NCBI RefSeq assembly: GCF_001864895.1
Contig: NZ_MJGO01000038.1
Location: forward strand, 1,773-65,772
DNA: 64,000 bases
Source of the DNA: Curtobacterium sp. MCBA15_009
GTDB lineage: Bacteria; Actinomycetota; Actinomycetes; Actinomycetales; Microbacteriaceae
Direction: 5' to 3'
The position numbers were made by a program, and so were the translations under genes. Positions 15,254-62,322 of the stretch are shown one piece after another (the first letter of the stretch is position 1; every line of letters starts with the position of its first letter). Under the pieces are notes generated by a model. It did no database searches. It was not told the DNA's origin and worked only from the letters and a program-made list of their open reading frames with translations.

Positions 15254-16875
15254 GCCGGACCGTGCACGCCCTGCCCGAGGTCGGCGCCGCGCCGCACGTG
15301 ACGTCGGCGCTCGCCGCGGACCTCGACGCCGCCGGCTTCACCGTCGAGCGGGTCGACTCGCTGTGGGGTGCCGAGGCCGCCGCGTCGCTGCACCGCGGCT
15401 CACGGGTGGCCGCCCTCCGGGCCCTCGCGGCGCGGCCGTCGTCACCGCTCGGCACGCTCGCGACCCTGTTCGTGCTCGGCCTGCCGGTCCCGCACGAGGA
15501 CGCCGCGGCGGCGTTCCCGACCGCCGGCCTCGACGCCGTGGTCGCCGCCGGCCTGCTCCGGGTCGATGGCATCGACGAAGCCGACGAAGCCGACGAAGCC
15601 GACGGCGGCGACGGACCCGACGGCACCGCCGACGCCGACGGCACCGAGGTCGTGCCGACCGTCGACCTGCGCCCCTACGCCTTCGTCGACGACCTCGGTG
15701 CCGGCAGCTGGTGGATCGTCTCCGACCTCGGCGAGCTCGCGCTCGGCCACGCGATCAGCGAGGAGCACGTGCTCGGCATCGGCGGGGCGACCACCACGCT
15801 GAGCGGTCTGCAGGTCCCGGTGCCCGTCCGCACGGTGCTCGACCTCGGCACCGGGTGTGGCATCCAGGCGATGCACGCCCGACGCTTCGCCGACCGGGTG
15901 GTCGCCACGGACATATCCCGCCGCGCCCTCGACATCGCCCGCTTCAACGCGCAGCTCAACGGGATCGACGGGATCGACTTCCGGTACGGCTCGCTCTTCG
16001 AGCCCGTCGCGGGGGAGCGGTTCGACCGCATCGTCTCGAACCCGCCGTTCGTCATCACGCCCCGCCGACCGGGCGTCCCCTCGTACGAGTACCGCGACGG
16101 CGGCATGGTCGGCGACGCCCTGGTCGAGACCGTGCTCCGCGGCCTGGCCGACCACCTGGAGCCCGGCGGGACCGCGCAGCTGCTCGGCAACTGGGAGTAC
16201 CATTGGGGCGTCGATGGCCTCGACCGCGTGCGCGGCTGGTTCGCGGACACCGACCTCGACGCGTGGGTCGTCGAGCGCGAGCGCCAGGACCCGACGTCCT
16301 ACGCCGAGACCTGGATCCGCGACGGCGGCACGAAGCCCGGCACGACCGAGTTCGACACGCTGGTGGGCGCCTGGCTCGACGACTTCGCGGAGCGCCGCGT
16401 CACCGGCGTCGGCTTCGGGTACGTCGTGGTGCGTCGACCCCTGCCGGGAGGCCCGCCCTGCCTCCGCCGGTTCGAGCGCGTCCCCGAGGCGCTCGGCTCC
16501 AATCCCGCCGGGCTCGGTGCCACGGTGGCGCGCGTCCTCGACGCGGCCGCCTGGCTCGCCGGGCACGACGACGCCGCGCTCGCCGCCACGCACCTGTCGG
16601 TCGCCGGCGACGTGACCGAGGAGCGCTACTACTGGCCGGGCAACGACGACCCGACGGTGATGACGCTCGTGCAGGGCGGGGGACTCGGCCGCCGGGTCGA
16701 CGCGGACACCGCGCTCGCCGCGTTCGTCGGCGCCTGTGACGGCGACCTGTCCGTGGCCGCGATCATCGGCGCGCTCTCGCAGATCACCGGGGTGGACGAG
16801 CAGGCGCTCGCCGCCGACCTGCTGCCGGCGGCGCGCGACCTGGTGCTCGACGGGCTGCTCGTCCCCGCTGCCTGA
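15250..16875 (+). CDS. Fused class I methyltransferase (DUF7059-MTase-DUF7782 type)
   Basis: A 541-residue protein. An N-terminal helical domain (about 1-130) ends in a low-complexity linker with triplicated DEA and D/G-rich residues. A SAM-binding methyltransferase domain follows, with VLDLGTGCGIQAMHA and the NPPF motif (IVSNPPFVIT), the mark of methylases acting on amino groups such as rRNA bases or glutamine. The C-terminal ~170 residues form an additional domain. This architecture is common in actinobacteria as a putative rRNA or release-factor methylase; the target is unproven. GTG 15250 overlaps the ArsR stop. Confidence 0.83.
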   Translation: MSRTVHALPEVGAAPHVTSALAADLDAAGFTVERVDSLWGAEAAASLHRGSRVAALRALAARPSSPLGTLATLFVLGLPVPHEDAAAAFPTAGLDAVVAAGLLRVDGIDEADEADEADGGDGPDGTADADGTEVVPTVDLRPYAFVDDLGAGSWWIVSDLGELALGHAISEEHVLGIGGATTTLSGLQVPVPVRTVLDLGTGCGIQAMHARRFADRVVATDISRRALDIARFNAQLNGIDGIDFRYGSLFEPVAGERFDRIVSNPPFVITPRRPGVPSYEYRDGGMVGDALVETVLRGLADHLEPGGTAQLLGNWEYHWGVDGLDRVRGWFADTDLDAWVVERERQDPTSYAETWIRDGGTKPGTTEFDTLVGAWLDDFAERRVTGVGFGYVVVRRPLPGGPPCLRRFERVPEALGSNPAGLGATVARVLDAAAWLAGHDDAALAATHLSVAGDVTEERYYWPGNDDPTVMTLVQGGGLGRRVDADTALAAFVGACDGDLSVAAIIGALSQITGVDEQALAADLLPAARDLVLDGLLVPAA

Positions 16876-16908
16876 GCCCAAACGGGGACCGAGCGACCCC
16901 GCTCGCGC

Positions 16909-17772
16909 TCAGGCGCGGTGGTCGCGCCAGCTGTGCTCCGGCGCGTAGCCGAGCAGTTCGCGGGCCTTCTCCGACGACAGCAGTGAGCTGACCCCGTCGA
17001 TGTCCGCGCGGCGCTCGATGTCCGGCACGAAGCGCTCGACGAGCTCGATGGTCGGCGTGTCCATCACGGTGTCCGGGCTCGCGATGACGAACGCCTCGAA
17101 CCCGGTGAGGTCGGCCTCGAGGGACTTCCGGACTGCCTGGGCACCGTCGCGCGAGTCGATGTACGACCACAGGTTGAAGGTCTTCGCCTCCGGGGTGGCG
17201 TCCCACGGGAAGGCCGGGTAGTCGGTCTCGTCCATGACGTTCGAGAACCGCAGCCCGATCATCTTCAGCTCCGGGTCCCAGCGGGTGAAGTGGCGCGCCA
17301 TCTCCTCCTCCACGGCCTTGCCGAGCGAGTACGACGACTGCGGGCGGACCGCGAACTCCTCGTCGACGGGCAGGTAGGGCGGGTGGTGCTCGCCCATCGG
17401 GATCCCGAGCAGGGTCTCGCTCGACGCCCACACCACGTTCTTGATCCCGGCCGCTCGGGCCGCGTGGAAGACGTTGATCGACGACGTGACGTTGTTCGTG
17501 ATGAGCGCCACGTCGGGGACCTGTCCGGGGGCCGGCACGGCCGCGAGGTGGACGACGGCGTCCACGTGGTCGTAGCGGTCGTCGATGCCCATGAAGGCGT
17601 TCAGCACCTGCCCGTGGTCGGTCAGGTCGATCCGCAGGAAGGGCACCCGCTCGGGCTTGTCCGGCGCTGGCACGCGGTCGAGCAGGACCACGTCGTACCC
17701 GTGCGCGTCGAGGTCGCGCACCACCGCCCGCCCGAGCTTGCCACTGCCACCGGTCACCAACACACGCGTCAT
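16909..17772 (-). CDS. NAD(P)-dependent epimerase/oxidoreductase (extended SDR)
   Basis: A 287-residue extended short-chain dehydrogenase. The N-terminal nucleotide-binding motif is LVTGGSGKLGRAVVRDL. VVHLAAVPAPG, the catalytic Ser region (VVWASSETLLG) and the YxxxK-type site (SSYSLGKAVEEEMA) follow. It resembles UDP-glucose 4-epimerase-like oxidoreductases, but the substrate is not determined. It is transcribed leftward from 17772, convergent with the methyltransferase; a GTTCCGGACAC repeat copy lies upstream. Confidence 0.85.
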   Translation of the reverse strand: MTRVLVTGGSGKLGRAVVRDLDAHGYDVVLLDRVPAPDKPERVPFLRIDLTDHGQVLNAFMGIDDRYDHVDAVVHLAAVPAPGQVPDVALITNNVTSSINVFHAARAAGIKNVVWASSETLLGIPMGEHHPPYLPVDEEFAVRPQSSYSLGKAVEEEMARHFTRWDPELKMIGLRFSNVMDETDYPAFPWDATPEAKTFNLWSYIDSRDGAQAVRKSLEADLTGFEAFVIASPDTVMDTPTIELVERFVPDIERRADIDGVSSLLSSEKARELLGYAPEHSWRDHRA

Positions 17773-17880
17773 CGCGTCTCTCCACATCGTCGTCGGGGTG
17801 CACCCCGGAGGGTCCGCTCCATCCTGCCCCGGGCGGCCGGGGTCGGGCCAGGCCCTGTCCGTACCCCGCTCCGCCGTGCG

Positions 17881-17940
17881 AACCAGGTTCCGGACACGAC
17901 ACCACGGGATCGCGCGGTGCTGTGTCCGGAACCTGGTTCC
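17881..17940. repeat. Dispersed palindromic repeat, GTTCCGGACAC family, copy 2
   Basis: AACCAGGTTCCGGACAC and its complement on the other side enclose a centre closely similar to copy 1 at 8041-8099. It lies between two leftward genes (SDR and TetR). Confidence 0.75.
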
Positions 17941-17981
17941 GGGCGGGGAGCGGCCCGGGCGGGGAGCGACCGGGGGCAGCG

Positions 17982-18572
17982 TCAGACGGCCGGCGCCGCC
18001 TGGGCGATCGCGAGCCGGGTGACGAGTTCGACGTGCCGGGCCATGTCGCGCGAGGGGTCGAACAGCCACTGGATCTGCATGCCGTCGGAGACCGCGAGCA
18101 GGACGCTGGTCAGTTCCTCGGCGTCGACGTCGGTGCGGAGCCGGCCGTCCTGCTGCATCGCCCGGAAGTCCGCGGACAGGTCGCGGCGGGTGCGGTCGTA
18201 GCGCTCCTGGAAGTACGCGTGCGCGGGGTGGTCCGGGTCGGTCGCCGCGGCCGCGGACAGGTTGACGAACATCTGCACGAGGCCGGGCACCGAGACGTTG
18301 TGCCGCACGATGGCGGCGAGCAGCTCGCCCGGGTCGGCGGCGTCCCAGTCGGTGGCGGCGTCGGAGTCGTCGCGGCGGCGGAGGACCTCGACCCAGAGGT
18401 CGTCCTTCGAGTCGAAGTAGTGCAGCAGGCCGGCCTGGGTCAGACCGACGGCGTCGGCGATGTCCTTGATGCTCGTCCGGCGGAACCCCTGTGAGGCGAC
18501 GAGTTCGAGGGCGACCGTCAGGATCTCCTCGCGCTTTGCGATCCCCTTCGCGTACGAACCCCGTTGTGCCAT
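17982..18572 (-). CDS. TetR-family regulator of the beta-glucoside locus
   Basis: A 196-residue protein. The N-terminal helix-turn-helix (REEILTVALELVASQGFRRTSIKDIADAVGLTQAGLLHYFDSKDDL) is typical of TetR/AcrR regulators; the C-terminal domain has no recognisable ligand motif. It is divergent from an MFS transporter and a GH3 glycosidase, so it probably represses them and is released by a sugar or glycoside. The shared spacer has an AAAACC/GGTTTT inverted repeat. Confidence 0.87.
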   Translation of the reverse strand: MAQRGSYAKGIAKREEILTVALELVASQGFRRTSIKDIADAVGLTQAGLLHYFDSKDDLWVEVLRRRDDSDAATDWDAADPGELLAAIVRHNVSVPGLVQMFVNLSAAAATDPDHPAHAYFQERYDRTRRDLSADFRAMQQDGRLRTDVDAEELTSVLLAVSDGMQIQWLFDPSRDMARHVELVTRLAIAQAAPAV

Positions 18573-38579: not shown

Positions 38580-38596
38580 GTCTGGTCTGTCTCTTG

Positions 38597-38633
38597 CGAA
38601 TATCCCGCCGGCCTGAGTCCGGCGGGATATTCG
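38597..38633 (+). terminator. Terminator after nrdF
   Basis: CGAATATCCCGCCGG pairs with CCGGCGGGATATTCG around a short loop, 17 bases after the nrdF stop. It also marks the boundary between core DNA and the AT-richer defence locus. Confidence 0.8.
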
Positions 38634-38775
38634 CGTCACGAGCACAGCGCGTCTCTGGCAACGCTTCCGCTTCAAAAGACAGCGTATACGTACCGTAGTG
38701 GCGTACCATTCAGTACATTTCGAACAACCCGAAAGCTGACGTTAGAGGTGATGTTAGGGGGCTTGCATTTGCGCC

Positions 38776-40653
38776 TCAAAACGTGATTACGTTCTCGGGT
38801 CTAAATAGACCTAGCTTGCGAACTTGGGATACAGCTTCCATAGCACTTGGGGTGAAGAGGGCGACAGCCAGCGAGCGCTCGGCTCGTGAGCAGACTACAT
38901 AAAGCAGCCGCCGCGTTCTGTCCAAAGTTGATTCACGACCATTCGAGATGTGGTCTAGGTCCGTGGCGGAAAGCTCGCGGAGTTCGAACAGCTTCTCGTA
39001 GGAAAAACTATTCCCGACAGCCGCGTCATCCTCAAGTAGCACCAGCACCCGTTCAAACTCCGCCCCCTTGACCCCTTGGTGCGTAGCGAAGACGGAGTGC
39101 TCGTCGAGGTAACTCTGGTAAGCCAGCAATTCACGTGCGGGGCAGTCAAAGAAGCGGGCAAGCACGCCGTGCTCAACTGAGTCCCCGACACTCTCGTGAG
39201 TTGCTGCATAATTGAGCAGTTGCTCGTACGGCGAGAAGTTGTCGTCCAGAGCCCAAAGGCCCGATGATAACGCGTGGGACAAAAGGGTTCGGACGGTCGC
39301 GTCGCTATCCGGCCTCATGAGATTGCTGATTTCCTCGGTTGCAGCCGACAGGGACGAAAGACGGGACGCGAGCGCGGGCGTGCGTTCTAGGTCCAACGGG
39401 CTATTCGCCCGTACCAATTCCATCTGGGCGTAACTGTCCCCTCTCCGGACTGCCAAAGCCAAGGGAGTAAGGTAGGACACAAAGGGCTGGATTGACCACG
39501 CGGTTCCTTCGGAGATCCCCTCCTTCAGTCTGTCAGTGCTCCTGTCATGGTGAGAGGCGAATATCTGCTCGAACCCAAGACGGCGAGCCGCTAGACGATG
39601 CTCGATAACGAGTACCCTCGGGGCGCTCGGGCTCCCGTCCTCAACACGCCAATTGGAATCCGTCGTCGAGTTGGCCATAATTGCGCGGACTTCCTGCAGC
39701 TGGGAGTCGCGATCACCTGTGCTTGCGAGGACAAACAGTTTCGCATCGCCTAAGAGTGTTTTGCCTGTGACTGCGTCCCGCCGACCGCCTGTTTGTTTGA
39801 GTGAGCCAGGCACTCCACCCCGAATGTTATTGATCACCTCGAGGATCATCGAAGGGCAACGGAAGTTCTCGGGCTTATCGATCTGAGCCCAGTCGGGCTC
39901 GATCGGTATTGACCCAATGCCCGTCGAGTAAATTTGCTGCATTTCGTCACCAAGGAACCCGATCGATATCGCGCAAGTTGGGTCGGCCGCGATGGCCTTC
40001 AAAGCGGCTACGACCGAGGGGAAGGTGTCCTGGCTCTCATCGACGAAGACGAACGGATATTGGTGTGCTAGTAGTCGGCGGAGAAGAGATTTCTCCATAA
40101 GCAATTCCGGCACCATTTTGATGACATCATCGTGGCCGAGCACTCCTCGCGCGTAGCGGCTCCCAATGCCGTATGTGAAGGTCGTTTCCGGAGTCAGGGC
40201 AGCGCGGTCGGCTTCAAGGCGAGCTATTAGAGCGTCGTTCTTTGTGATGGTAGAGCCGCGGGTGCCCTTTTTACTGTTGTGCTCGAGAAGTGCTGCAATC
40301 TTTCCTTCGATCCTTCTATCCACCCACAACGCAATGTCACGCCTGAAAGGGCGGACAACAGTCCACAAGAAGCTGTGAATGGTTGACACGTGAAAGACTG
40401 GGTCAAGGTCGACTTCGCCATGAATCTCTTCGGCGGCGACTTCGGTGTAGGTGATGCACGCGACCTTTTGTCCTTGACGGCGTAGTTGCGATCCTTTCGC
40501 GTCTCGCAAGTGAGCGAGCGCCTTGACGAGAGAAGTAGTCTTCCCTGATCCTGCTCCTGCGTTCACGACGAAGCATGGCGGAGTGTCGCCTTCAAGGAGT
40601 TCACGAAGCCGCAGATCCGCAGGAGTGTCGGGACTGTCGATACGACGACTCAT
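38776..40653 (-). CDS. gajB: UvrD-like helicase of a Gabija-type defence pair (GajB-like)
   Basis: A 625-residue superfamily 1 helicase. Walker A is residues 32-40 (AGAGSGKTT), motif II is FVFVDESQD, and the C-terminal motifs are ATHQGVKGAEFERVLVL and RRLLYVVCSRAERSL. The ATG at 40653 overlaps the stop of the upstream nuclease (ATGA). In Gabija, GajB senses nucleotides or DNA ends and activates the GajA nuclease against phage. It is longer than the Bacillus cereus GajB (about 494 residues). Base composition is visibly AT-richer than the flanking nrd and metabolic genes, a sign of transfer. Other UvrD-OLD pairs exist, so Gabija is the best but not the only call. Confidence 0.78.
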   Translation of the reverse strand: MSRRIDSPDTPADLRLRELLEGDTPPCFVVNAGAGSGKTTSLVKALAHLRDAKGSQLRRQGQKVACITYTEVAAEEIHGEVDLDPVFHVSTIHSFLWTVVRPFRRDIALWVDRRIEGKIAALLEHNSKKGTRGSTITKNDALIARLEADRAALTPETTFTYGIGSRYARGVLGHDDVIKMVPELLMEKSLLRRLLAHQYPFVFVDESQDTFPSVVAALKAIAADPTCAISIGFLGDEMQQIYSTGIGSIPIEPDWAQIDKPENFRCPSMILEVINNIRGGVPGSLKQTGGRRDAVTGKTLLGDAKLFVLASTGDRDSQLQEVRAIMANSTTDSNWRVEDGSPSAPRVLVIEHRLAARRLGFEQIFASHHDRSTDRLKEGISEGTAWSIQPFVSYLTPLALAVRRGDSYAQMELVRANSPLDLERTPALASRLSSLSAATEEISNLMRPDSDATVRTLLSHALSSGLWALDDNFSPYEQLLNYAATHESVGDSVEHGVLARFFDCPARELLAYQSYLDEHSVFATHQGVKGAEFERVLVLLEDDAAVGNSFSYEKLFELRELSATDLDHISNGRESTLDRTRRLLYVVCSRAERSLAVALFTPSAMEAVSQVRKLGLFRPENVITF

Positions 40654-42785
40654 TTCGTTGTTCCACCTGTCTTCACCGGCGCGAGAAGAGTAGACAACCA
40701 GTCGAGCCCGTCCACGATGTACTGCGGAGCCTTCCATTGCCCCGCAGAAATCATCAGTGCTAAAGCGAGTTCGGTCTTCTTGAAGTTTGCACGTTTGACT
40801 TGCTTGTGTATGTCTTCGACTATGTCGTCGATTGTTGAACTAGCCGGTTCGAACTTCTTAGACACGAGGGCGAGGTCATCTCGCTGATCTTCCGATAGGA
40901 CCCACTCGAGATTTTCAAACGCGAAAGTCTCTTCAAACGTTCTCCCGGAGACAATTTGACAGTTGCCGTCCCACGATACACAGCTACTAGTTTGATACGC
41001 TATACGCACAGGCGCGGGACTTTCGCCTCCCGTGCCGAAGACTTTCTTATGTTCGGGCAAGGCGAGTAGATCCGCTATCGCCTCGATTCGTGGGTGCCAA
41101 GAGCGAAGTGAGGGATTAGCGGTGACTGCGTATTCTGCATCAGCTCGGCATGCCTTGCGGCCATTCGAAGCCGCTGTCAGGTGGGGTGCTCCCTTTGCAG
41201 CGTTTGCCGCTTTCGTCGCAGGGGCAACGCTGTCAAGATCTGTTATGACCAGGGCTGGGACACCAAGGAGTTTGAGCAACGGTGCGAGTTTGTGAGCGAA
41301 TGCTCCGCCGACCTCCAATATAGTCAGGTAGCTGGAAGTGAGCTTCGGCGAGTGTTCTTCTATAATAGATGGTAGCAGCAAGCGTTCGACGTTTCCTTCG
41401 ACCAGAATCGCGGCGTCTGCAAAGAAGAGATCGCAATGTGTTAGCTTCATATACTTATGAAGGAACGTCTTTGCGTCGGCGTCGAGTGCTTCTAATCTCG
41501 AGACATCTCGGACTTCTGATTCGTGCCGACCCTGTAAGAGTTGCTTGCGACGAAAATATCGAATGGGGGTGAACTGGCTTTCGTTGATGATTTGCGCCGA
41601 GTGGGTAGTTACGATCAGCTGGGTAGTCATCCCGCTCGCATCCGAGATGATCTCTCGGATTTTTGCGATGAAGACCTGCTGAAGTTGAGCATGTAGGTGC
41701 GCCTCTGGTTCTTCGATAACGACGAGATGCACCGGGGTGCGGTGTTCCTGCGTCGTCCATCGTTGGTGGAAATCTAAAACCTGAATCACCATGTAAATGA
41801 GGTTTTTGAAGCCCAGTCCGTTATACTTCTCAGGAAGGTGGGTTCCTACGAGATCTCCTTCGGCACGCGGGAGTGAGTATTCGACGCTGGCGTCCTGTGC
41901 CATAATTTGCTTGGGATTGAAGTGAGATCGAATCACGAGATCGGGATTCTCTATGCCGGGGTAGCCCAAGGTGTTGAGGTTTTCGAGCGTCGAGGCGAAG
42001 ACTTGTTCGAGGTGCTTGTTGAAGCTTTCTTCGGACGCGTGTAAAGCCTGAAGGACGCTCGTATCTGTCTTAAATTGATCAAGATTGCGCTGATAGAACT
42101 TGCTGAGGCTGCGCGATAGGTCTTGTGTGCGAGCGCCAACTTCTGTATCCGACAGGAAGCGTTGAGCGTCGAGGAAATTGAGAGTCATCAGACCGTCAAG
42201 TACGGCTGCGGCCTCTCCCTTCGCGTGGAGCATGGGGTGCTCACGTAGTTCATCCGGCCCAGCCTTCTCGAGGACGTAATAATTCAGGTTGTACTCGGCC
42301 TGCAGCCGATCTTTCAAGTAATCTTCGAGGGATGTCGGCCAAGGATGGTAGGAATCAATGGCGTCGGTGGCGGCATTCTCTTTCGCCGCTCGGTAATCAT
42401 CGAACAACCGGTTCGAATCACTCGGTTCAAATCGTAGGCGGATACCTACCGGCTGCCCGTTCCAGTCGAGGCTTGGTAGAATGTCGACGACTCGGTAGAC
42501 CTCTTCGTCCTCCACGTTGAACCAGAGGTCTAGGGTTATCTTTGGAAGTTCCGGGCGCTCGCCATGTTTGTGGTCGTAGTTCCGGAGGGTCTCAAGGCAT
42601 TCCGCGCTGAAGTCGTAGATCGCGACGTCCTTGGCTCTGCCGGTAACGAGGAGGCGTAGAACCGCGGCAGCGGAGGTCTTGCCGCTGTTGTTGGCTCCAA
42701 CAAATATGGTGGTTTGTTCTTCCAGATCTATCTCGACTGCTTTCAAGCGGCGAAAGTTGTTCACGGCCATGTTCGTCAAGTGCAT
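40650..42785 (-). CDS. gajA: OLD-family ATPase/TOPRIM nuclease (GajA-like)
   Basis: A 711-residue protein. The N-terminal ABC-type ATPase has Walker A at residues 30-37 (GANNSGKT) and Walker B in HLVVIEEPEAHLHAQLQQVF, followed by TTHSAQIINES. The C-terminal TOPRIM nuclease has ILVEGNVERLLLPSI (catalytic Glu) and VITDLDS (acidic pair). ATP-gated OLD nucleases paired with a UvrD helicase define Gabija. It is longer than the archetype (about 578 residues) because of an enlarged middle and C-terminal region. ATG 42785 is chosen behind a GGGGA. Coupled to gajB by ATGA, in archetypal gene order. Confidence 0.8.
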   Translation of the reverse strand: MHLTNMAVNNFRRLKAVEIDLEEQTTIFVGANNSGKTSAAAVLRLLVTGRAKDVAIYDFSAECLETLRNYDHKHGERPELPKITLDLWFNVEDEEVYRVVDILPSLDWNGQPVGIRLRFEPSDSNRLFDDYRAAKENAATDAIDSYHPWPTSLEDYLKDRLQAEYNLNYYVLEKAGPDELREHPMLHAKGEAAAVLDGLMTLNFLDAQRFLSDTEVGARTQDLSRSLSKFYQRNLDQFKTDTSVLQALHASEESFNKHLEQVFASTLENLNTLGYPGIENPDLVIRSHFNPKQIMAQDASVEYSLPRAEGDLVGTHLPEKYNGLGFKNLIYMVIQVLDFHQRWTTQEHRTPVHLVVIEEPEAHLHAQLQQVFIAKIREIISDASGMTTQLIVTTHSAQIINESQFTPIRYFRRKQLLQGRHESEVRDVSRLEALDADAKTFLHKYMKLTHCDLFFADAAILVEGNVERLLLPSIIEEHSPKLTSSYLTILEVGGAFAHKLAPLLKLLGVPALVITDLDSVAPATKAANAAKGAPHLTAASNGRKACRADAEYAVTANPSLRSWHPRIEAIADLLALPEHKKVFGTGGESPAPVRIAYQTSSCVSWDGNCQIVSGRTFEETFAFENLEWVLSEDQRDDLALVSKKFEPASSTIDDIVEDIHKQVKRANFKKTELALALMISAGQWKAPQYIVDGLDWLSTLLAPVKTGGTTK

Positions 42786-43550
42786 TGGTCCCCGTTGATC
42801 GCTTGGTTTGCTGACGCGCTCATCGCTGCTGCCTGTGATTCCAGAGGCGCAGTGAAGGTGAGCCTTGTTCGGGAGCTTAGACCAGGTCGTTGGCGCGCTG
42901 GTGTTGTAAATGGGCTCCACGCGCGTTAGGACTGAGTCTGAGCGCTGTCGTTGCTCTCCGGGACACGTCCGGCGCCTCGGCTCCGTCGTGTTCGATCCCA
43001 GATTTCCGGTTGGCTAGAGACCACCAAGGTTGAGCCCGATCAGTCCCGCAACGCGAGAGCGTGGCGGTGATACGACCCGGGGGACTGGATCCAAACGCGT
43101 TTCACCTCTCGTTGATGAACGTGGAGTTGAGTGTTGACGCTGCCGCGACAGGCCGTGCTTGCAAATGTGTTTGATAGCGACTCGATCGCGCGTTTGCCCC
43201 TGCGCAGGACCTCATAGGCAGTACAGGGACTAAAGGCAGAGTGGGTCCGCCTCGACGGGGTTGGACTGGCGAGGCTTGCTCGTATGCGTTCCTGGATGCC
43301 GATGGCACTATCGATTTTTGAGGCGGGCGGCAACCGCACTCGTAGTTGGGCCGGACCCGGGCTGCCTCCCGCGCACGCATGGGATGTTCGGCCTGACAGC
43401 TCCTCGCTTCGGCGGGAGGGTTCCTGTCCTCTACTGGCTGCTGTCTCCGTACTCGAGTCCTTGCAGCTTGTCATCGGGGCGGCCGGTGGATCGGAAGGTG
43501 ACCCCAGTGCCAGAACACCCTCCCGGCGGACCGCATCCGCGCTCCAGAGT
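42786..43550. other. AT-richer scar region right of the defence pair
   Basis: About 765 bases with no convincing gene. The composition changes gradually from AT-rich to GC-rich. The longest open frame (43040-43474, minus strand) has no recognisable domain and odd residue composition, so it is not called. No integrase, tRNA or clear direct-repeat attachment site was seen. It probably holds eroded DNA from insertion or loss events. Confidence 0.4.
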
Positions 43551-43758
43551 GGCGGCGACGCCCCAGTCCTGCACCTCGTCGTGGAAGACGGTGAAGGCGG
43601 GCTCGTCGAACTGGATGACGTCGACGCCGGCAGCTTCGAGCTCCCGGGCTTCTTCGTTCAGGATCGTGGCGAACTCCCACGCCAGCTTCTCGCGGCTCTT
43701 GTAGTGCTGGTCGGAGAGGGTGTCGATCATCGTCATCGGGCCGGGAAGCGCCCACTTA
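43551..43758 (-). pseudogene. Internal fragment of mesD
   Basis: About 207 bp almost identical to 61735-61941 inside the intact mesD; only about three differences are visible. It encodes the segment from IKWALPGPMTMIDTL to FHDEVQDWGVAA without start or stop. The sequence diverges sharply on the right (after CCCACTT) and more gradually on the left. The near-identity implies recent duplication, recombination or replacement by a close relative's DNA. Confidence 0.85.
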
Positions 43759-43801
43759 ATGGACGAGGCGGAGTAGGGCGAGACCGGACGAGCCGGCCGG
43801 C

Positions 43802-44639: not shown

Positions 44640-45269
44640 ATGCCCCGACCGCGCAAGTTCGACGAGGCCGACGTCGTCGAGCGCGCCCGGCGCACGTTCG
44701 CGGAGTCCGGGTTCGACGGCACGTCCCTCGACGACCTGCTCGCGGCGACCGGCCTCGGTCGGCAGAGCCTCTACAACACGTTCGGCGGCAAGAAGGAACT
44801 CTTCATGCGCGCCTTCCTCAGCGACACCGCCGAGGCCGTCGAGGTCGTGCAGGCGGTCCTGCGGAGTGCGGAGTCACCGATCGCGCGGATCCGGACGCAG
44901 TTGGTGTCCGTGGCTGTGGAGCACGGTGCAGCGCAGGGGGCACCCTCGCTGCTGCTCCGCGCGGCGGTGGAGCTGTCGGCCCGTGATCCGGAGGTCGCCG
45001 CGACCGTCACGGAGACCTTCGACACCATCCGCGCCGGCTACACGGCCTGCATCGTCGACGCGCAGGCGGCCGGCGAGGTCGAGGCCGATGCCGACGCGGA
45101 GGCGCTCGGCACCTACTTCTGCGCGGTGATCGAGGGGATGGGGGCGATCGGGCGCGTCGGGACCTCGCGAGCGGCGCTCCTGCAAGTCGGGATCGCGAGC
45201 CTCGCGGCCCTACCGATCACGCCGCTCGGCAAGGAGCGCCTCGGGACCGCGGACGGTCCCTGGGACTGA
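44640..45269 (+). CDS. TetR-family regulator
   Basis: A 209-residue regulator. The N-terminal helix-turn-helix (VVERARRTFAESGFDGTSLDDLLAATGLGRQSLYNTFGGKKELF) is of the kind found in many quinone- or electrophile-sensing TetR proteins. The C-terminal ligand domain is alanine-rich and contains two cysteines (TACIVD and TYFCAV). It faces an SDR gene and a palindromic operator, so local repression is likely. Confidence 0.9.
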   Translation: MPRPRKFDEADVVERARRTFAESGFDGTSLDDLLAATGLGRQSLYNTFGGKKELFMRAFLSDTAEAVEVVQAVLRSAESPIARIRTQLVSVAVEHGAAQGAPSLLLRAAVELSARDPEVAATVTETFDTIRAGYTACIVDAQAAGEVEADADAEALGTYFCAVIEGMGAIGRVGTSRAALLQVGIASLAALPITPLGKERLGTADGPWD

Positions 45270-57414: not shown

Positions 57415-57965
57415 CCCGCACCCTTCGTGCATACGGAGTGTTCATCGGAGCCCTCGGGATCCTCTTGGCCTGGTTGGTGACGACCTTGCTTCTGTCATTG
57501 GCGCCCAACGCTCTGACGTCAAGGACCGCTGCGGGAACGGCCGCGCGCGACTTCGTCGCGGCGGTCGCTCCTCAGCGGTGGGAGTTCTTCACCGCATCGC
57601 TGCAGAAGTCTGCCCTCACTGCGTATTCCTCGGCCTCGTCATCGTCGCTACTCGATTTGCCGCAGACCCGCGCTCGCAACCTCTTCGGTATGTCACGAAC
57701 TCAACGTGCGCAGGGACCGGAGATCGCTCTGATCTCGGCCGACGTGAAGTGGGTCAAGTGCTCGAATCGCTGGCAGCCCGAAACCTGCGTCAAGCAAGCT
57801 CAGCGCGGGGTCCAGCAAGTAGTTGCAAACTCCGCAGCACACCGAACCCTCTGTGGGCCGATGGTGCTCGCGCAAGTAAAGCCGACTCCGTTCGAATTCA
57901 GGGGGTTTGGGTACGAATCCACGTACATCGTCCGCACCGCGTCAGTGAGCGTCAGATGCAACTGA
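57411..57965 (+). CDS. SdpA-like antimicrobial peptide maturation protein
   Basis: A 184-residue membrane-anchored protein. One N-terminal helix (YGVFIGALGILLAWLVTTLLLSLA) is followed by an extracytoplasmic domain with LDLPQTRARNLFGMSRTQRAQGPEI and four cysteines (KWVKC, ETCVK, TLCGP, VRCN). Its length, single N-terminal helix and place directly after an SdpC-like gene fit the SdpA family, which with SdpB is required to make active SDP toxin in Bacillus. GTG 57411 overlaps the toxin stop. Confidence 0.78.
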   Translation: MTRTLRAYGVFIGALGILLAWLVTTLLLSLAPNALTSRTAAGTAARDFVAAVAPQRWEFFTASLQKSALTAYSSASSSSLLDLPQTRARNLFGMSRTQRAQGPEIALISADVKWVKCSNRWQPETCVKQAQRGVQQVVANSAAHRTLCGPMVLAQVKPTPFEFRGFGYESTYIVRTASVSVRCN

Positions 57966-58915
57966 TAATCGGAGAGCTTCGGGTGCTTGCGCTGCAGCGG
58001 GCGTTGTCGATGTTCGAGATTCGCGGATCCCAGCTCTGGGCAGGCCGCTCTCTGATTGCCGGGGCGGAGTTGCTCACTCTGCTTCTGACGCCCTACTCGG
58101 CGCTCATGCAATCCGTGGCCGGTGCAGCTCCTGCGCCGCACTGCGCTGGGGTCCGCGCAATCGGAGCCTACTGCCTGATGAAGGATTCGCCGCATTGGGT
58201 GCCGACGATGACACTCGTCAGCATTCTCCTATGCGTTCTCGCTGGCGTCTTGCCCGCAATCGTCGGCTGGCTGCATGTCTGGGCCGCCTTCTCGATCGCG
58301 AGCGCCATCGCTTCGCCCGACGGCGGGGACCAAGCAGCGGTTGTGTTCCTGATCCTTGTCGCTGTCGTCAACATCGCGGACGACCGCCGATACGGATTTG
58401 ATCGCCGTCGGCGTCGACTTTCTGCTCCACGGCTTCAGATTGCTCTCGCAGGGCTCTTCGCAATCCGCATCCAAGTGGCAATGATCTACTTTGACAGCGG
58501 GATCGGAAAGGTGTTCGCGAACGACTGGGTCACTGGCGCTGCTGAGTACTACGTCATTCGAGACCTCTATTTCGGCGCATCGGGGCCAGTCGCATCGGTT
58601 ATGAGGGCCCTTACCTCGAACACGTTGGTCGTCGTTTCGTTGACCTGGGGTGCAATAGTGCTTGAAGTGGCGATAGCCGTGCTGATCCTCTGCGGGCCTC
58701 ATTCACGCAAGTTTGCGCTGATTGCTTGCTCCATCCTGCACACTGCGATCATCATCACTATCGGCCTCTGGAGTTTCGGACTCACGATGATCGGTGGAGT
58801 GGCGATCGCTGCAATCGCGACGAGCAGGCGTGATCCGCGGAGTCATCCAATCCCTCCCACGATGGATCCTCGAAGACTGATCTCGGTCGTCGAAGACGAT
58901 GTAACGGTCATCTGA
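57956..58915 (+). CDS. SdpB-like HTTM membrane protein
   Basis: A 319-residue polytopic membrane protein, close to the 323 residues of Bacillus SdpB. About seven helices include LQIALAGLFAIRIQVAMIYFDSGIGKVFANDWVTGAAEYYVI, the characteristic HTTM/SdpB segment. HTTM proteins resemble the membrane part of vitamin K-dependent gamma-carboxylase. In the Bacillus system SdpB is essential for toxin maturation; its chemistry is unclear. ATG 57956 overlaps the sdpA-like stop, giving an unbroken coupled order toxin-sdpA-sdpB. Confidence 0.8.
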   Translation: MQLIIGELRVLALQRALSMFEIRGSQLWAGRSLIAGAELLTLLLTPYSALMQSVAGAAPAPHCAGVRAIGAYCLMKDSPHWVPTMTLVSILLCVLAGVLPAIVGWLHVWAAFSIASAIASPDGGDQAAVVFLILVAVVNIADDRRYGFDRRRRRLSAPRLQIALAGLFAIRIQVAMIYFDSGIGKVFANDWVTGAAEYYVIRDLYFGASGPVASVMRALTSNTLVVVSLTWGAIVLEVAIAVLILCGPHSRKFALIACSILHTAIIITIGLWSFGLTMIGGVAIAAIATSRRDPRSHPIPPTMDPRRLISVVEDDVTVI

Positions 58916-61272: not shown

Positions 61273-62322
61273 TCAGCGCGCCGACGGAACGGCCGAGCCG
61301 ACGAGCTCAGCCCGCACGATGTCCGTACCAGCGGACAGCGCGCTGAGCTTGCCGAGCGCCGCCCCCCTGGCCAGCGGAGCCATCCCGCAGTTCGAGCTCG
61401 GGATCAGCTTGTCCGCATCGACGAACTCGAGGGCCCGACGCAGGACCTCTGCGACCTCGTCCGGCGTCTCGACGGTCTCGGTGGCGACGTCGACCGCGCC
61501 GAGCATGACCTTCTTGCCGCGGATGAGCTCGACGAGCTCGAGGGGTACGTGCGAGTGGATGCACTCGAGCGAGACGATGTCGATCGACGACTGCTGCAGG
61601 AGCGGGAACGACTGCTCGTACTGCCGCCACTCGGCGCCGAGGGTCTCCTTCCACTTGTTGTTCGCCTCGATGCCGTAGCCGTAACAGATGTGCACGGCGG
61701 TCTCGGCGCGCAGGCCCTCGGTGGCGCGTTCGAGGGCGGCGACGCCCCAGTCCTGTACCTCGTCGTGGAAGACGGTGAAGGCGGGCTCGTCGAACTGGAT
61801 GACGTCGACGCCGGCAGCTTCGAGCTCCCGGGCTTCTTGGTTCAGGATCGTGGCGAACTCCCACGCCAGCTTCTCGCGGCTCTTGTAGTGCTGGTCGGAG
61901 AGGGTGTCGATCATCGTCATCGGGCCGGGGAGCGCCCACTTGATCGGTCGGTCGGTCTGTGCGCGGAGGAACCGGGCGTCGTCGACGAAGACCGGGGCGG
62001 GGCGGCTCACGGCGCCGACGACTGTGGGGACGGCAGCGTCGTACCGGTCGCGGATCCGGACGGTCTCCTTGCGCTCCTGGTCGATGCCGTCCAGGTGCTC
62101 GATGAACGTGGTGACGAAGTGCTGGCGGGTTTGCTCGCCGTCGCTGACGATGTCGATGCCGCGGCGTTCCTGCTCGTGGACGGCGGAGCGCAGGGCGTCC
62201 TGCTTGCCCTCGACCAGGGCGGCACCGTCGAGCTGCCAGGGGGACCAGAGTCGCTCGGGCTCGGCGAGCCAGGACGGCTTCGGCAGGCTGCCGACGATCG
62301 AGGTGGGGAGGAGAGAGCTCAT
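61273..62322 (-). CDS. mesD: Folate-independent methionine synthase MesD (MetE catalytic-domain only)
   Basis: A 349-residue protein equal to the C-terminal half of MetE. The zinc ligands appear as VHICYGYG (His, Cys), SLECIHSH (Glu) and SSNCGMAPL (Cys). The folate-binding N-terminal half of MetE is absent. Core MetE proteins next to a DUF1852 partner are the MesD type, which methylate homocysteine from a methyl donor other than 5-methyl-THF and need oxygen. It starts at ATG 62322, 20 bases after mesX. An internal fragment is duplicated at 43551-43758. Confidence 0.9.
   Translation of the reverse strand: MSSLLPTSIVGSLPKPSWLAEPERLWSPWQLDGAALVEGKQDALRSAVHEQERRGIDIVSDGEQTRQHFVTTFIEHLDGIDQERKETVRIRDRYDAAVPTVVGAVSRPAPVFVDDARFLRAQTDRPIKWALPGPMTMIDTLSDQHYKSREKLAWEFATILNQEARELEAAGVDVIQFDEPAFTVFHDEVQDWGVAALERATEGLRAETAVHICYGYGIEANNKWKETLGAEWRQYEQSFPLLQQSSIDIVSLECIHSHVPLELVELIRGKKVMLGAVDVATETVETPDEVAEVLRRALEFVDADKLIPSSNCGMAPLARGAALGKLSALSAGTDIVRAELVGSAVPSAR

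What the first reader, a model, noticed from the sequence alone, without database searches (positions are those of the whole stretch)
38776..42785. Gabija-like defence pair with enlarged subunits next to nrdF
An OLD-type ATPase/TOPRIM nuclease and a UvrD-like helicase overlap as ATGA in archetypal gajA-gajB order. Both are clearly longer (711 and 625 residues) than the characterised Bacillus proteins. Base composition is strikingly AT-richer than all neighbours. This may be a distinct subtype with an extra module.
Basis: partly seen in the sequence, partly recalled or inferred. Interest (0 to 1): 0.62.

Follow-up and report, generated by a model that had tools for sequence, protein, structure and literature searches.

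The report
Ordinary long-form Gabija anti-phage pair
Two overlapping genes, probably acquired from outside, encode a nuclease and a helicase of the known Gabija anti-phage system, in a larger-bodied version that is found in many bacterial phyla, so the find is a new member of a known kind and not a new type.

Summary
On the minus strand a 711-residue OLD-type ATPase/TOPRIM gene (42785-40650) overlaps by ATGA a 625-residue UvrD-like helicase gene (40653-38776). Both are longer than B. cereus GajA/GajB (578/494) and AT-rich (GC 53% and 57%, window 69%). Gabija is supported: PADLOC GajA and GajB profiles match almost end to end (E 5e-227, 3e-202), active-site and helicase motifs are intact, and the predicted GajA fold matches solved B. 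cereus GajA with 492 aligned residues between 1 and 700. 'Distinct subtype with an extra module' is not supported as something new. The size is normal for its branch: of 80 relatives kept from a scan of species genomes, 78 have the helicase at once downstream, and 75 measurable GajA proteins have a median of 754 residues (9 shorter than 711). The surplus lies inside the ATPase lobe and after the TOPRIM core; no separate domain was recognised, though part of the lobe is poorly modelled. How the long form relates to the short B. cereus form is unresolved. More noteworthy is the site: downstream of nrdF all 21 genus members compared, one of the same species included, carry other DNA, in several cases genes with conflict-linked domains.

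The parts
40650..42785 (-). gajA-like gene, 711 aa: ABC-type ATPase domain (about 1-400) plus OLD-like TOPRIM (454-518) and C-terminal part
   Evidence: PADLOC GajA PDLC00093 E 5.3e-227; Pfam AAA_15 E 6.8e-46 and OLD-like_TOPRIM E 2.9e-18; K36, H395, E463, G494, D516, D518, E618, K670 invariant in 44 of 44 aligned sequences; fold match to B. cereus GajA
38776..40653 (-). gajB-like gene, 625 aa: UvrD-like superfamily 1 helicase
   Evidence: PADLOC GajB PDLC00143 E 3e-202; Pfam UvrD-helicase E 2.1e-17; K38, D205-E206-x-Q208-D209, R265, K529-G530, R590 invariant in 40 of 40; fold matches UvrD and, more weakly, B. cereus GajB
40650..40653 (-). ATGA stop/start overlap of gajA and gajB
   Evidence: sequence; by script-chosen starts 33 of 78 relatives have the same 4-base overlap and 58 of 78 overlap by some amount
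38596..38634 (.). perfect 16-bp inverted repeat with 7-base loop between the convergent nrdF and gajB ends; possible terminator without a T run
   Evidence: read in the sequence and located; the terminator scan, which asks for a T run, does not list it; several relatives have a different GC-rich hairpin there
38594..43780 (.). variable segment holding gajAB; other DNA in its place in 21 of 21 genus members compared
43551..43760 (-). 210-bp fragment of a methionine-synthase (Meth_synt_2) gene, 98% identical to part of the longer copy at 61735-61944; scar at the distal edge of the variable segment
37578..38579 (+). nrdF (ribonucleotide reductase small subunit), conserved proximal flank
   Evidence: named nrdF in plasmid records with 83-86% identical proteins

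Best explanation
The pair is a Gabija (class 2 OLD) anti-phage system of the long-form branch, acquired by horizontal transfer into a variable site downstream of nrdF. Seen here: the gene pair, its profile identity, intact ATPase, TOPRIM and helicase motifs, the predicted folds, foreign composition, absence from a same-species genome. Inferred from work on other Gabija systems: GajA multimerises through its ATPase lobe, GajB docks on it, the ATPase lobe holds the nuclease in check while nucleotides or normal end-processing are present, and on infection GajA nicks or cuts linear phage DNA with help from GajB. This host has no RecB match above the family cut-off, but two successive frames that each carry a UvrD-type helicase and a PDDEXK nuclease match, the layout of AdnAB. 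If the end-protection model found for P. aeruginosa Gabija applies here, phage DNA kept free of AdnAB-like processing would be the trigger.
For: PADLOC GajA E 5.3e-227 over 1-705 and GajB E 3e-202 over 1-624. Pfam AAA_15, OLD-like_TOPRIM, UvrD. E463, D516, D518 correspond to E379, D432, D434 of B. cereus GajA, and G493-G494 to G409-G410 (site from passages of PMC10781630; numbering from the alignment; conservation). K36 and H395 correspond to K35 and H320, mutated in PMC8136825 (passages). GajA model (pLDDT 83.1): 8x5i_D GajA Z 20.8, 492 aligned, rmsd 5.6, 16% identity, between residues 1 and 700. Helicase frame at once downstream in 78 of 80 relatives; in the other two the GajA frame is cut short (482 and 627 aa) and the contig ends 189 and 259 bases later. 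Foreign composition and absence from same-species G450. Host end-processing genes.
Against: No functional data for this pair, and none for a close relative in the paper listings I saw. Identity to B. cereus GajA is low: phmmer E 3.4e-11, best stretch 347-520. By Z the GajA match is tied with SMC heads (20.5, about 300 residues of ATPase domain), and retron Eco8 OLD nuclease also matches along the whole chain (9lpa_B Z 18.6, 471 aligned, 1-703), so the fold shows an OLD nuclease more than Gabija as such. The GajB model matches UvrD better (Z 27.3) than B. cereus GajB (Z 18.0, 329 aligned, rmsd 7.8). In the PDB sequence search the GajB profile hits PcrA, Rep and UvrD before GajB and the GajA profile hits TsOLD 6p74 slightly before GajA. 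Published Gabija mechanisms disagree (nucleotide depletion against end-sensing without abortion). Neither AdnAB-like frame reaches an NCBIfam cut-off.
Confidence: 0.88

Rival explanations
1. The long-form OLD+UvrD pair was assembled independently of B. cereus-type Gabija from an OLD nuclease and a UvrD-like helicase, and works by related but separate rules; profile libraries lump the two.
For: Long branches separate the long and short forms in both proteins; single-gene OLD rows attach between the two forms in the unrooted trees; the GajB profile is nearer to PcrA/Rep/UvrD than to B. cereus GajB in the PDB; profile-profile alignment of the two GajB families covers 296 columns, residues 17-355 of 625.
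Against: Class 2 against class 1 is not rejected (p-AU 0.475 without the wrongly labelled row L168; with it relabelled the split is already in the best tree at support 61.7). Neither GajB form nests inside the UvrD/RecB/AddA set. The GajA families align from residue 1 through the TOPRIM DxD. Same gene order and tight coupling. Without a root none of these trees decides.
Confidence: 0.13
2. Not defence: a housekeeping or mobile-element DNA-repair pair (RecF/RecN-like ATPase plus UvrD-like helicase).
For: Weak RecF, RecN and Rep matches.
Against: These scores are far below their cut-offs. Only 2 of 66 genus genomes, the window's own included, carry a full-length homologue, and the same-species genome has none. 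Foreign composition; relatives on plasmids and in a filamentous phage; a gene annotated Shedu close by in one relative.
Confidence: 0.05
3. A genuinely enlarged Gabija variant with an additional functional module.
For: The Walker A to EEPE segment is 322 residues against 245-263 in eight short-form proteins, and 195 follow the DxD against 117-192. In the profile alignment most of the first surplus falls at residues 73-206 (134 against 88 residues), where the model has two helices and two strands. Residues 211-330 are poorly modelled (block pLDDT 43-69), so a module there is not excluded.
Against: The window protein is at the short end of its branch (median 754, 9 of 75 shorter than 711). No Pfam domain other than ATPase and TOPRIM families was hit. 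The chain aligns to GajA between 1 and 700. The single-gene OLD of phage KS5 also has 308 residues in the first segment.
Confidence: 0.07

Closest known systems
Gabija long-form branch (PADLOC GajA PDLC00093/PDLC00095 with GajB PDLC00143/PDLC00111)
   Same: Profile length, near end-to-end match, gene order, tight coupling, motifs
   Different: Nothing of note; the window GajA is on the short side and at most 46-49% identical to the nearest relatives found
Gabija of Bacillus cereus VD045 (GajA 578 aa, GajB 494 aa)
   Same: ABC ATPase plus TOPRIM with E/GG/DxD, UvrD-like helicase, GajA fold
   Different: Long-form GajA has a longer ATPase lobe and C-terminal part; GajB spacing is closer to full-size UvrD-like helicases; DESQD instead of the DEYQD of the short-form alignment; 16-18% identity in structure alignments
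Gabija of Pseudomonas aeruginosa PA14 (PMC12407980: abstract, sections 5, 12, 35 and passages seen)
   Same: GajB described with a DESQ motif, as in the long form; both genes needed for defence
   Different: Sequence not compared here; its host uses RecBCD, this host appears to have an AdnAB-like pair
Class 1 OLD nucleases (for example the OLD of phage KS5)
   Same: ATPase plus TOPRIM architecture
   Different: Single gene without helicase partner; here a helicase gene overlaps

Membership tests
Gabija (class 2 OLD) | gajA directly followed by a UvrD-like gajB on the same strand | tested here: met
   ATGA overlap; PADLOC matches
Gabija (class 2 OLD) | N-terminal ABC-type ATPase with Walker A, EEPE and THS motifs | tested here: met
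   Pfam AAA_15 1-400; K36, E358-E361, H395-S396 invariant in 44 of 44
Gabija (class 2 OLD) | TOPRIM active site: glutamate, glycine, DxD | tested here: met
   E463, G494, D516, D518 invariant in 44 of 44; G493, the counterpart of G409, is present in the window but varies in the branch (S in L007); B. cereus site
Gabija (class 2 OLD) | GajB with superfamily 1A helicase motifs | tested here: met
   K38, D205-E206-x-Q208-D209, R265, K529-G530, R590 invariant in 40 of 40
Gabija (class 2 OLD) | Fold of GajA along the chain | tested here: met
   8x5i_D Z 20.8, 492 aligned, between 1 and 700; tied by Z with SMC heads over the ATPase part, and retron Eco8 OLD also matches along the chain, so not exclusive
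Gabija (class 2 OLD) | Common descent with B. cereus-type Gabija to the exclusion of class 1 OLD | tested here: inconclusive
   not rejected (p-AU 0.475), long branches, three class 1 rows, no root
Gabija (class 2 OLD) | 4:4 GajA-GajB complex, DNA cleavage, phage resistance | not testable with these tools
   needs experiment
Class 1 OLD | single gene without helicase partner | tested here: not met
   overlapping helicase gene
PARIS (AriA/AriB, class 4 OLD) | ATPase and TOPRIM in separate genes (fusions are reported, passage) | tested here: not met
   one chain holds both; AriA profile E 4.6e-52 covers 1-400 only, far weaker than GajA; a helicase follows instead
Retron OLD (class 3) | reverse transcriptase and non-coding RNA next to the OLD gene | tested here: not met
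   neighbouring genes are gajB and nrdF on one side and, past a stretch without evident genes, an SDR gene on the other; Eco8 effector model 57.9 bits against a cut-off of 250; RNA families were not searched

The most novel reading that the evidence does not exclude
Long-form and short-form 'Gabija' are two separately assembled OLD+UvrD defence pairs that profile libraries lump together, so the solved B. cereus structure and nucleotide-sensing model may not apply to the long-form systems.
Probability: 0.13. Interest if true: 0.5.

Novelty: new member of a known kind. Interest (0 to 1): 0.17.

Why it matters
As a single find it adds one more Gabija locus. Two by-products have some use. Among the PDB sequence matches returned no full-length solved GajA or GajB is closer to the long form than the B. 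cereus ones, so conclusions from the B. cereus complex should be tested there. And the stretch downstream of nrdF in this actinobacterial genus is a place to look for further, possibly unknown, defence genes.

Tried and rejected
Extra module: not supported after landmark spacing, Pfam and the fold match along the chain, with the limit that residues 211-330 are poorly modelled. My landmark patterns for GajB caught only 14 of 78 long forms, so GajB spacing was taken from the invariant columns. Missing TOPRIM acids: rejected. PARIS and retron OLD: rejected.

Mistake found on checking: I had labelled row L168 (Mycobacterium genome) class 1 without looking at its neighbour; a scan shows a UvrD match just downstream, so it belongs with class 2. 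The AU value (p 0.258, four 'class 1' rows) is therefore replaced (three rows; p 0.475 without L168). L155 and L166 have no helicase frame in the stretch held, and L167's genome has no UvrD match near it. Because of the poorly modelled stretch I raised the odds of the extra-module rival from 0.05 to 0.07.

Third gene: 42786-43780 holds only short frames without coding-like composition and the methionine-synthase fragment; three actinobacterial relatives (L056, L071, L077) show no shared upstream gene by eye. Promoter- and terminator-like sites were no more than in shuffled sequence. Integrases were not searched for as such; none of six neighbouring frames scanned is one, and there is no tRNA.

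NCBIfam gave no family over its cut-off for the pair. The first genome-contig scan with the single protein found nothing; the alignment scan worked. No tool named the genus; plasmid searches with window DNA and NrdF did not settle it; Curtobacterium is only my recollection-based guess. Paper searches for Gabija with subtype, OLD phylogeny, class 2 OLD, Actinobacteria/Streptomyces, Curtobacterium/Microbacteriaceae, and for nrdF with defence islands (capped listings seen) showed no title or abstract on a long-form branch or on this site; the library holds only part of the literature. TsOLD (6p74) is not among the 50 rows of the fold list; that is no evidence of difference.

Rows left out before counts: GajA lengths use 75 of 80 loci (L086, L107, L109, L112, L135 dropped); the GajA tree uses 78 of the 80; A3 uses 43 and A4 39 of the 80 loci; the helicase tree uses 28 of 78 GajB. 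Trees used the quick method.
Full report
What is there. Two genes overlap by ATGA on the minus strand between nrdF and a short-chain dehydrogenase gene: 42785-40650, 711 aa, and 40653-38776, 625 aa. The first matches PADLOC GajA models nearly end to end (PDLC00093, E 5.3e-227, residues 1-705; PDLC00095, E 5.9e-227) and Pfam AAA_15 plus OLD-like_TOPRIM; the second matches PADLOC GajB (PDLC00143, E 3e-202, residues 1-624) and Pfam UvrD-helicase. No NCBIfam model reached its cut-off. GC is 53.1% and 56.7% against 69.1% for the window, and third-position GC is 0.60-0.63 against 0.97 in nrdF.

Is the size unusual? Against B. cereus (578 and 494 aa), yes. In 78 of 80 a helicase frame related to the window GajB lies at once downstream. 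In the other two (L086, L112) the GajA frame is itself cut short, at 482 and 627 aa, and the contig ends 189 and 259 bases later. By starts that my script chose, 58 of the 78 couplings overlap, 33 of them by exactly four bases; 19 are 0 to 30 bases apart; one measures 185 because the GajB frame of L115 is interrupted near its start. GajA length could be measured with landmarks in 75 of 80: median 754, range 665-817, nine shorter than 711. Organisms named in the titles include Actinomycetota, Pseudomonadota, Bacillota, Bacteroidota, Verrucomicrobiota, Planctomycetota and others. The branch is widespread but not frequent in the window's own phylum: the PADLOC model PDLC00093 rings at E 1e-20 in 4 of 396 genomes, the window's own included, and the window protein in 5 of 396 genomes of the order, the other four at 26-34% identity. 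In plasmids, 460 records match, 100 of them over at least 80% of the query, all under 60% identity.

Where the additional residues lie. From Walker A lysine to EEPE the window has 322 residues, eight short-form proteins 245-263, the long branch a median of 352. From EEPE to the TOPRIM glutamate: 105 against 88-94. From that glutamate to DxD: 53 in both. After DxD: 195 against 117-192. So the nuclease core is the same size and the surplus is in the ATPase lobe and the C-terminal part. In the profile alignment of long and short GajA most of the first surplus falls at residues 73-206 of the window (134 against 88); the model shows two helices and two strands there (124-140, 153-164, 165-174, 180-184) with good confidence, whereas 211-330 is poorly modelled (block pLDDT 43-69). 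I could not fold these parts alone, so a small domain there is not excluded. The single-gene OLD of phage KS5 also has 308 residues in the first stretch, so length there is not special to this pair. In GajB the spacing K38-D205-K529-R590 is 167, 324, 61 residues; in the short form (L147: K27-D168-K436-R467) it is 141, 268, 31. Eight UvrD/PcrA/Rep-type proteins have about 186-193, 334-372 and 45-46 between similar landmarks (landmarks a few residues off). The long GajB is thus nearer to the layout of a full-size UvrD-like helicase than the short form is.

Active sites. In 44 of 44 aligned GajA sequences K36, E358-E361, H395, E463, G494, D516, D518, E618 and K670 do not vary. PMC10781630 (passages) gives E379, G409, D432 and D434 as the B. 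cereus TOPRIM site. By the alignment printed, G409-G410 there is G493-G494 here; the second glycine is the invariant one in my alignments. PMC8136825 (passages) reports that E379A, D511A and K541A abolish cleavage; I did not establish which window residues match D511 and K541 (E618 and K670 are candidates). GajB keeps its helicase motifs in 40 of 40. The helicase Walker B is DESQD here and DEYQD in the short-form alignment; PA14 Gabija is described as DESQ (PMC12407980 section 5), a hint, not a test, that PA14 Gabija is nearer to the long form.

Fold. The GajA model (44 sequences, mean pLDDT 83.1, pTM 0.82; under 50 at 211-221, 236-248, 291-295, 531-537, 708-711) has solved GajA at the head of the list: 8x5i_D Z 20.8, rmsd 5.6, 492 aligned, 16% identity, between 1 and 700. 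By Z this is tied with SMC heads (20.5 and below) which cover about 300 residues of the ATPase part; retron Eco8 OLD nuclease also matches along the chain (9lpa_B Z 18.6, 471 aligned, 1-703). The GajB model (pLDDT 92.8) finds UvrD first (4c2t_B Z 27.3, 373 aligned) and B. cereus GajB later (8sm3_B Z 18.0, 329 aligned, rmsd 7.8; three partial chains at rmsd 2.6-2.8 over 193-196 residues).

Phylogeny. In a tree of 98 GajA-type rows the window joins Nocardioides, Streptomyces and Mycobacterium proteins (SH-aLRT 97) within the long form; in the 47-row tree the fork that holds the window is open. GajB shows the same four-row group (95). The eight short-form rows stand apart on long branches. Single-gene OLD rows attach between the two forms, on long branches. 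One row that I had called class 1 (L168) proved to have a UvrD match just downstream; it had fallen with the short forms. With it corrected, class 2 against the three class 1 rows is one split of the best tree at support 61.7, and without L168 holding class 2 together costs 0.58 log units, p-AU 0.475. Such a split says nothing of the root, so it neither shows nor rejects a single origin. In the helicase tree neither GajB form lies inside the UvrD/RecB/AddA set, with the same limit. The review PMC10568477 (passages) equates GajA with class 2 OLD; by that definition the pair is Gabija.

Site and spread. Within the genus 4 of 66 genomes have a match at E 1e-10: the window's own, one with a 49% identical protein (G470), and two weak partial matches of 27-31% identity. 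G470's pair lies in its own low-GC stretch on another contig than its nrdF (draft assembly). The one same-species genome, G450, has no match. Of 22 same-genus genomes with NrdF, 20 were fetched downstream of nrdF (L055 ends after 4,750 bases), plus G450. In 21 of 21, DNA similarity to the window stops between 38579 and 38626, and none of these genomes has a GajA match at E 1e-10 anywhere. G407 has the same flanks, resuming at 43781, with a different 6.2 kb between; G450 resumes at 44696 after a different 3.8 kb, mostly 56-58% GC.

Cargo of the site. I chose by eye 15 frames from 11 of these genomes and scanned them against PADLOC: 7 have a match at E 1e-3 and 8 none. The best are to RmrA (E 1.6e-16, 58 bits) and, by the ATPase end of the protein, to Ppl (E 2e-33); none is an end-to-end match to a named system. 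Ten of the 15 were scanned with Pfam: eight have a domain that I link, from general knowledge, to biological conflict or DNA targeting (Peptidase_M78 with HTH, TIR_2, MethyltransfD12, AAA_21, PIN_12, SocA_Panacea, GT4-conflict, SIR2_2) and two have no hit. Both G450 frames have none in either library. This is not a rate. In 11 of the 20 fetched genomes the methionine-synthase block (window 61 kb onwards) lies within 15 kb of nrdF. The window has a 210-bp piece of that gene at 43551-43760, 98% identical to part of its longer copy, at the outer edge of the segment: a sign of past rearrangement. No tRNA is in the window and none of six neighbouring frames scanned is an integrase; exchange by recombination between flanks is my inference.

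How it probably works. Shown here are the genes, motifs, folds and distribution. The rest is inferred from other Gabija systems: a GajA tetramer with GajB docked (PMC10781630), nuclease restraint by nucleotides (PMC8136825), or attack on linear DNA that lacks host end-processing (PMC12407980). These models conflict in part: the last reports no abortive infection. In this genome the recB model finds nothing over its cut-off. Two successive frames on contig 41 each carry UvrD-helicase and PDDEXK_1 matches over the Pfam cut-offs, the layout of AdnAB; no NCBIfam model reaches its cut-off on them and I had no AdnAB model to test. If end-sensing applies, that pair would be the counterpart of RecBCD; PMC12407980 itself mentions AddAB and AdnAB as analogous systems.

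Verdict. A correct and well-placed observation of a known system. The proposed novelty (a distinct subtype with an extra module) does not hold beyond 'member of the widespread long-form branch'. Interest is low; the variable site and the open relation of long to short form are the points worth carrying on.

Noticed in passing
window 38594-43780; L036-L055, L210: Stretch downstream of nrdF is different in all 21 genus members compared; in several the inserted DNA carries conflict-linked domains (TIR, SIR2, PIN, GT4-conflict, methyltransferase).
   Followed up: partly
L210 (G450) 16834-18474 and 15443-16378: Low-GC stretch with two frames (546 and 311 aa) in the place of gajAB in a same-species genome, no Pfam or PADLOC match at E 0.01.
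   Followed up: partly
L036 8130-10538 and L053 1250-3700: Proteins of 802 and 816 aa, 35% identical over 770 residues, at the same site in two genus members; neither has a PADLOC match and the first has no Pfam match (the second was not scanned with Pfam): candidate unknown defence gene.
   Followed up: partly
window 43551-43760 and 61735-61944: 210-bp direct repeat, 98% identical: fragment of a Meth_synt_2 gene next to the gajAB segment and the longer copy 18 kb away.
   Followed up: partly
window 57578-58915: Another low-GC gene (GC 0.60, third position 0.64) with an HTTM domain match.
   Followed up: partly
L008 (Sinorhizobium meliloti plasmid pC): Long-form Gabija about 0.9 kb from a gene annotated as Shedu immune nuclease.
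   Followed up: no
L012 (Pseudomonas phage PfAC02b): A filamentous phage record carries a Gabija pair (annotated as such), which branches near the base of the long form.
   Followed up: partly
L169, L191 (G419, genome of the Pectobacterium locus L078): A second, divergent OLD+UvrD pair in a genome that already has a long-form pair; it places near the junction of the forms on long branches.
   Followed up: partly
L168 (G424, genome of the Mycobacterium locus L071): A second OLD gene with a UvrD match just downstream in a genome that already has a long-form pair; it falls with the short forms on a very long branch.
   Followed up: partly
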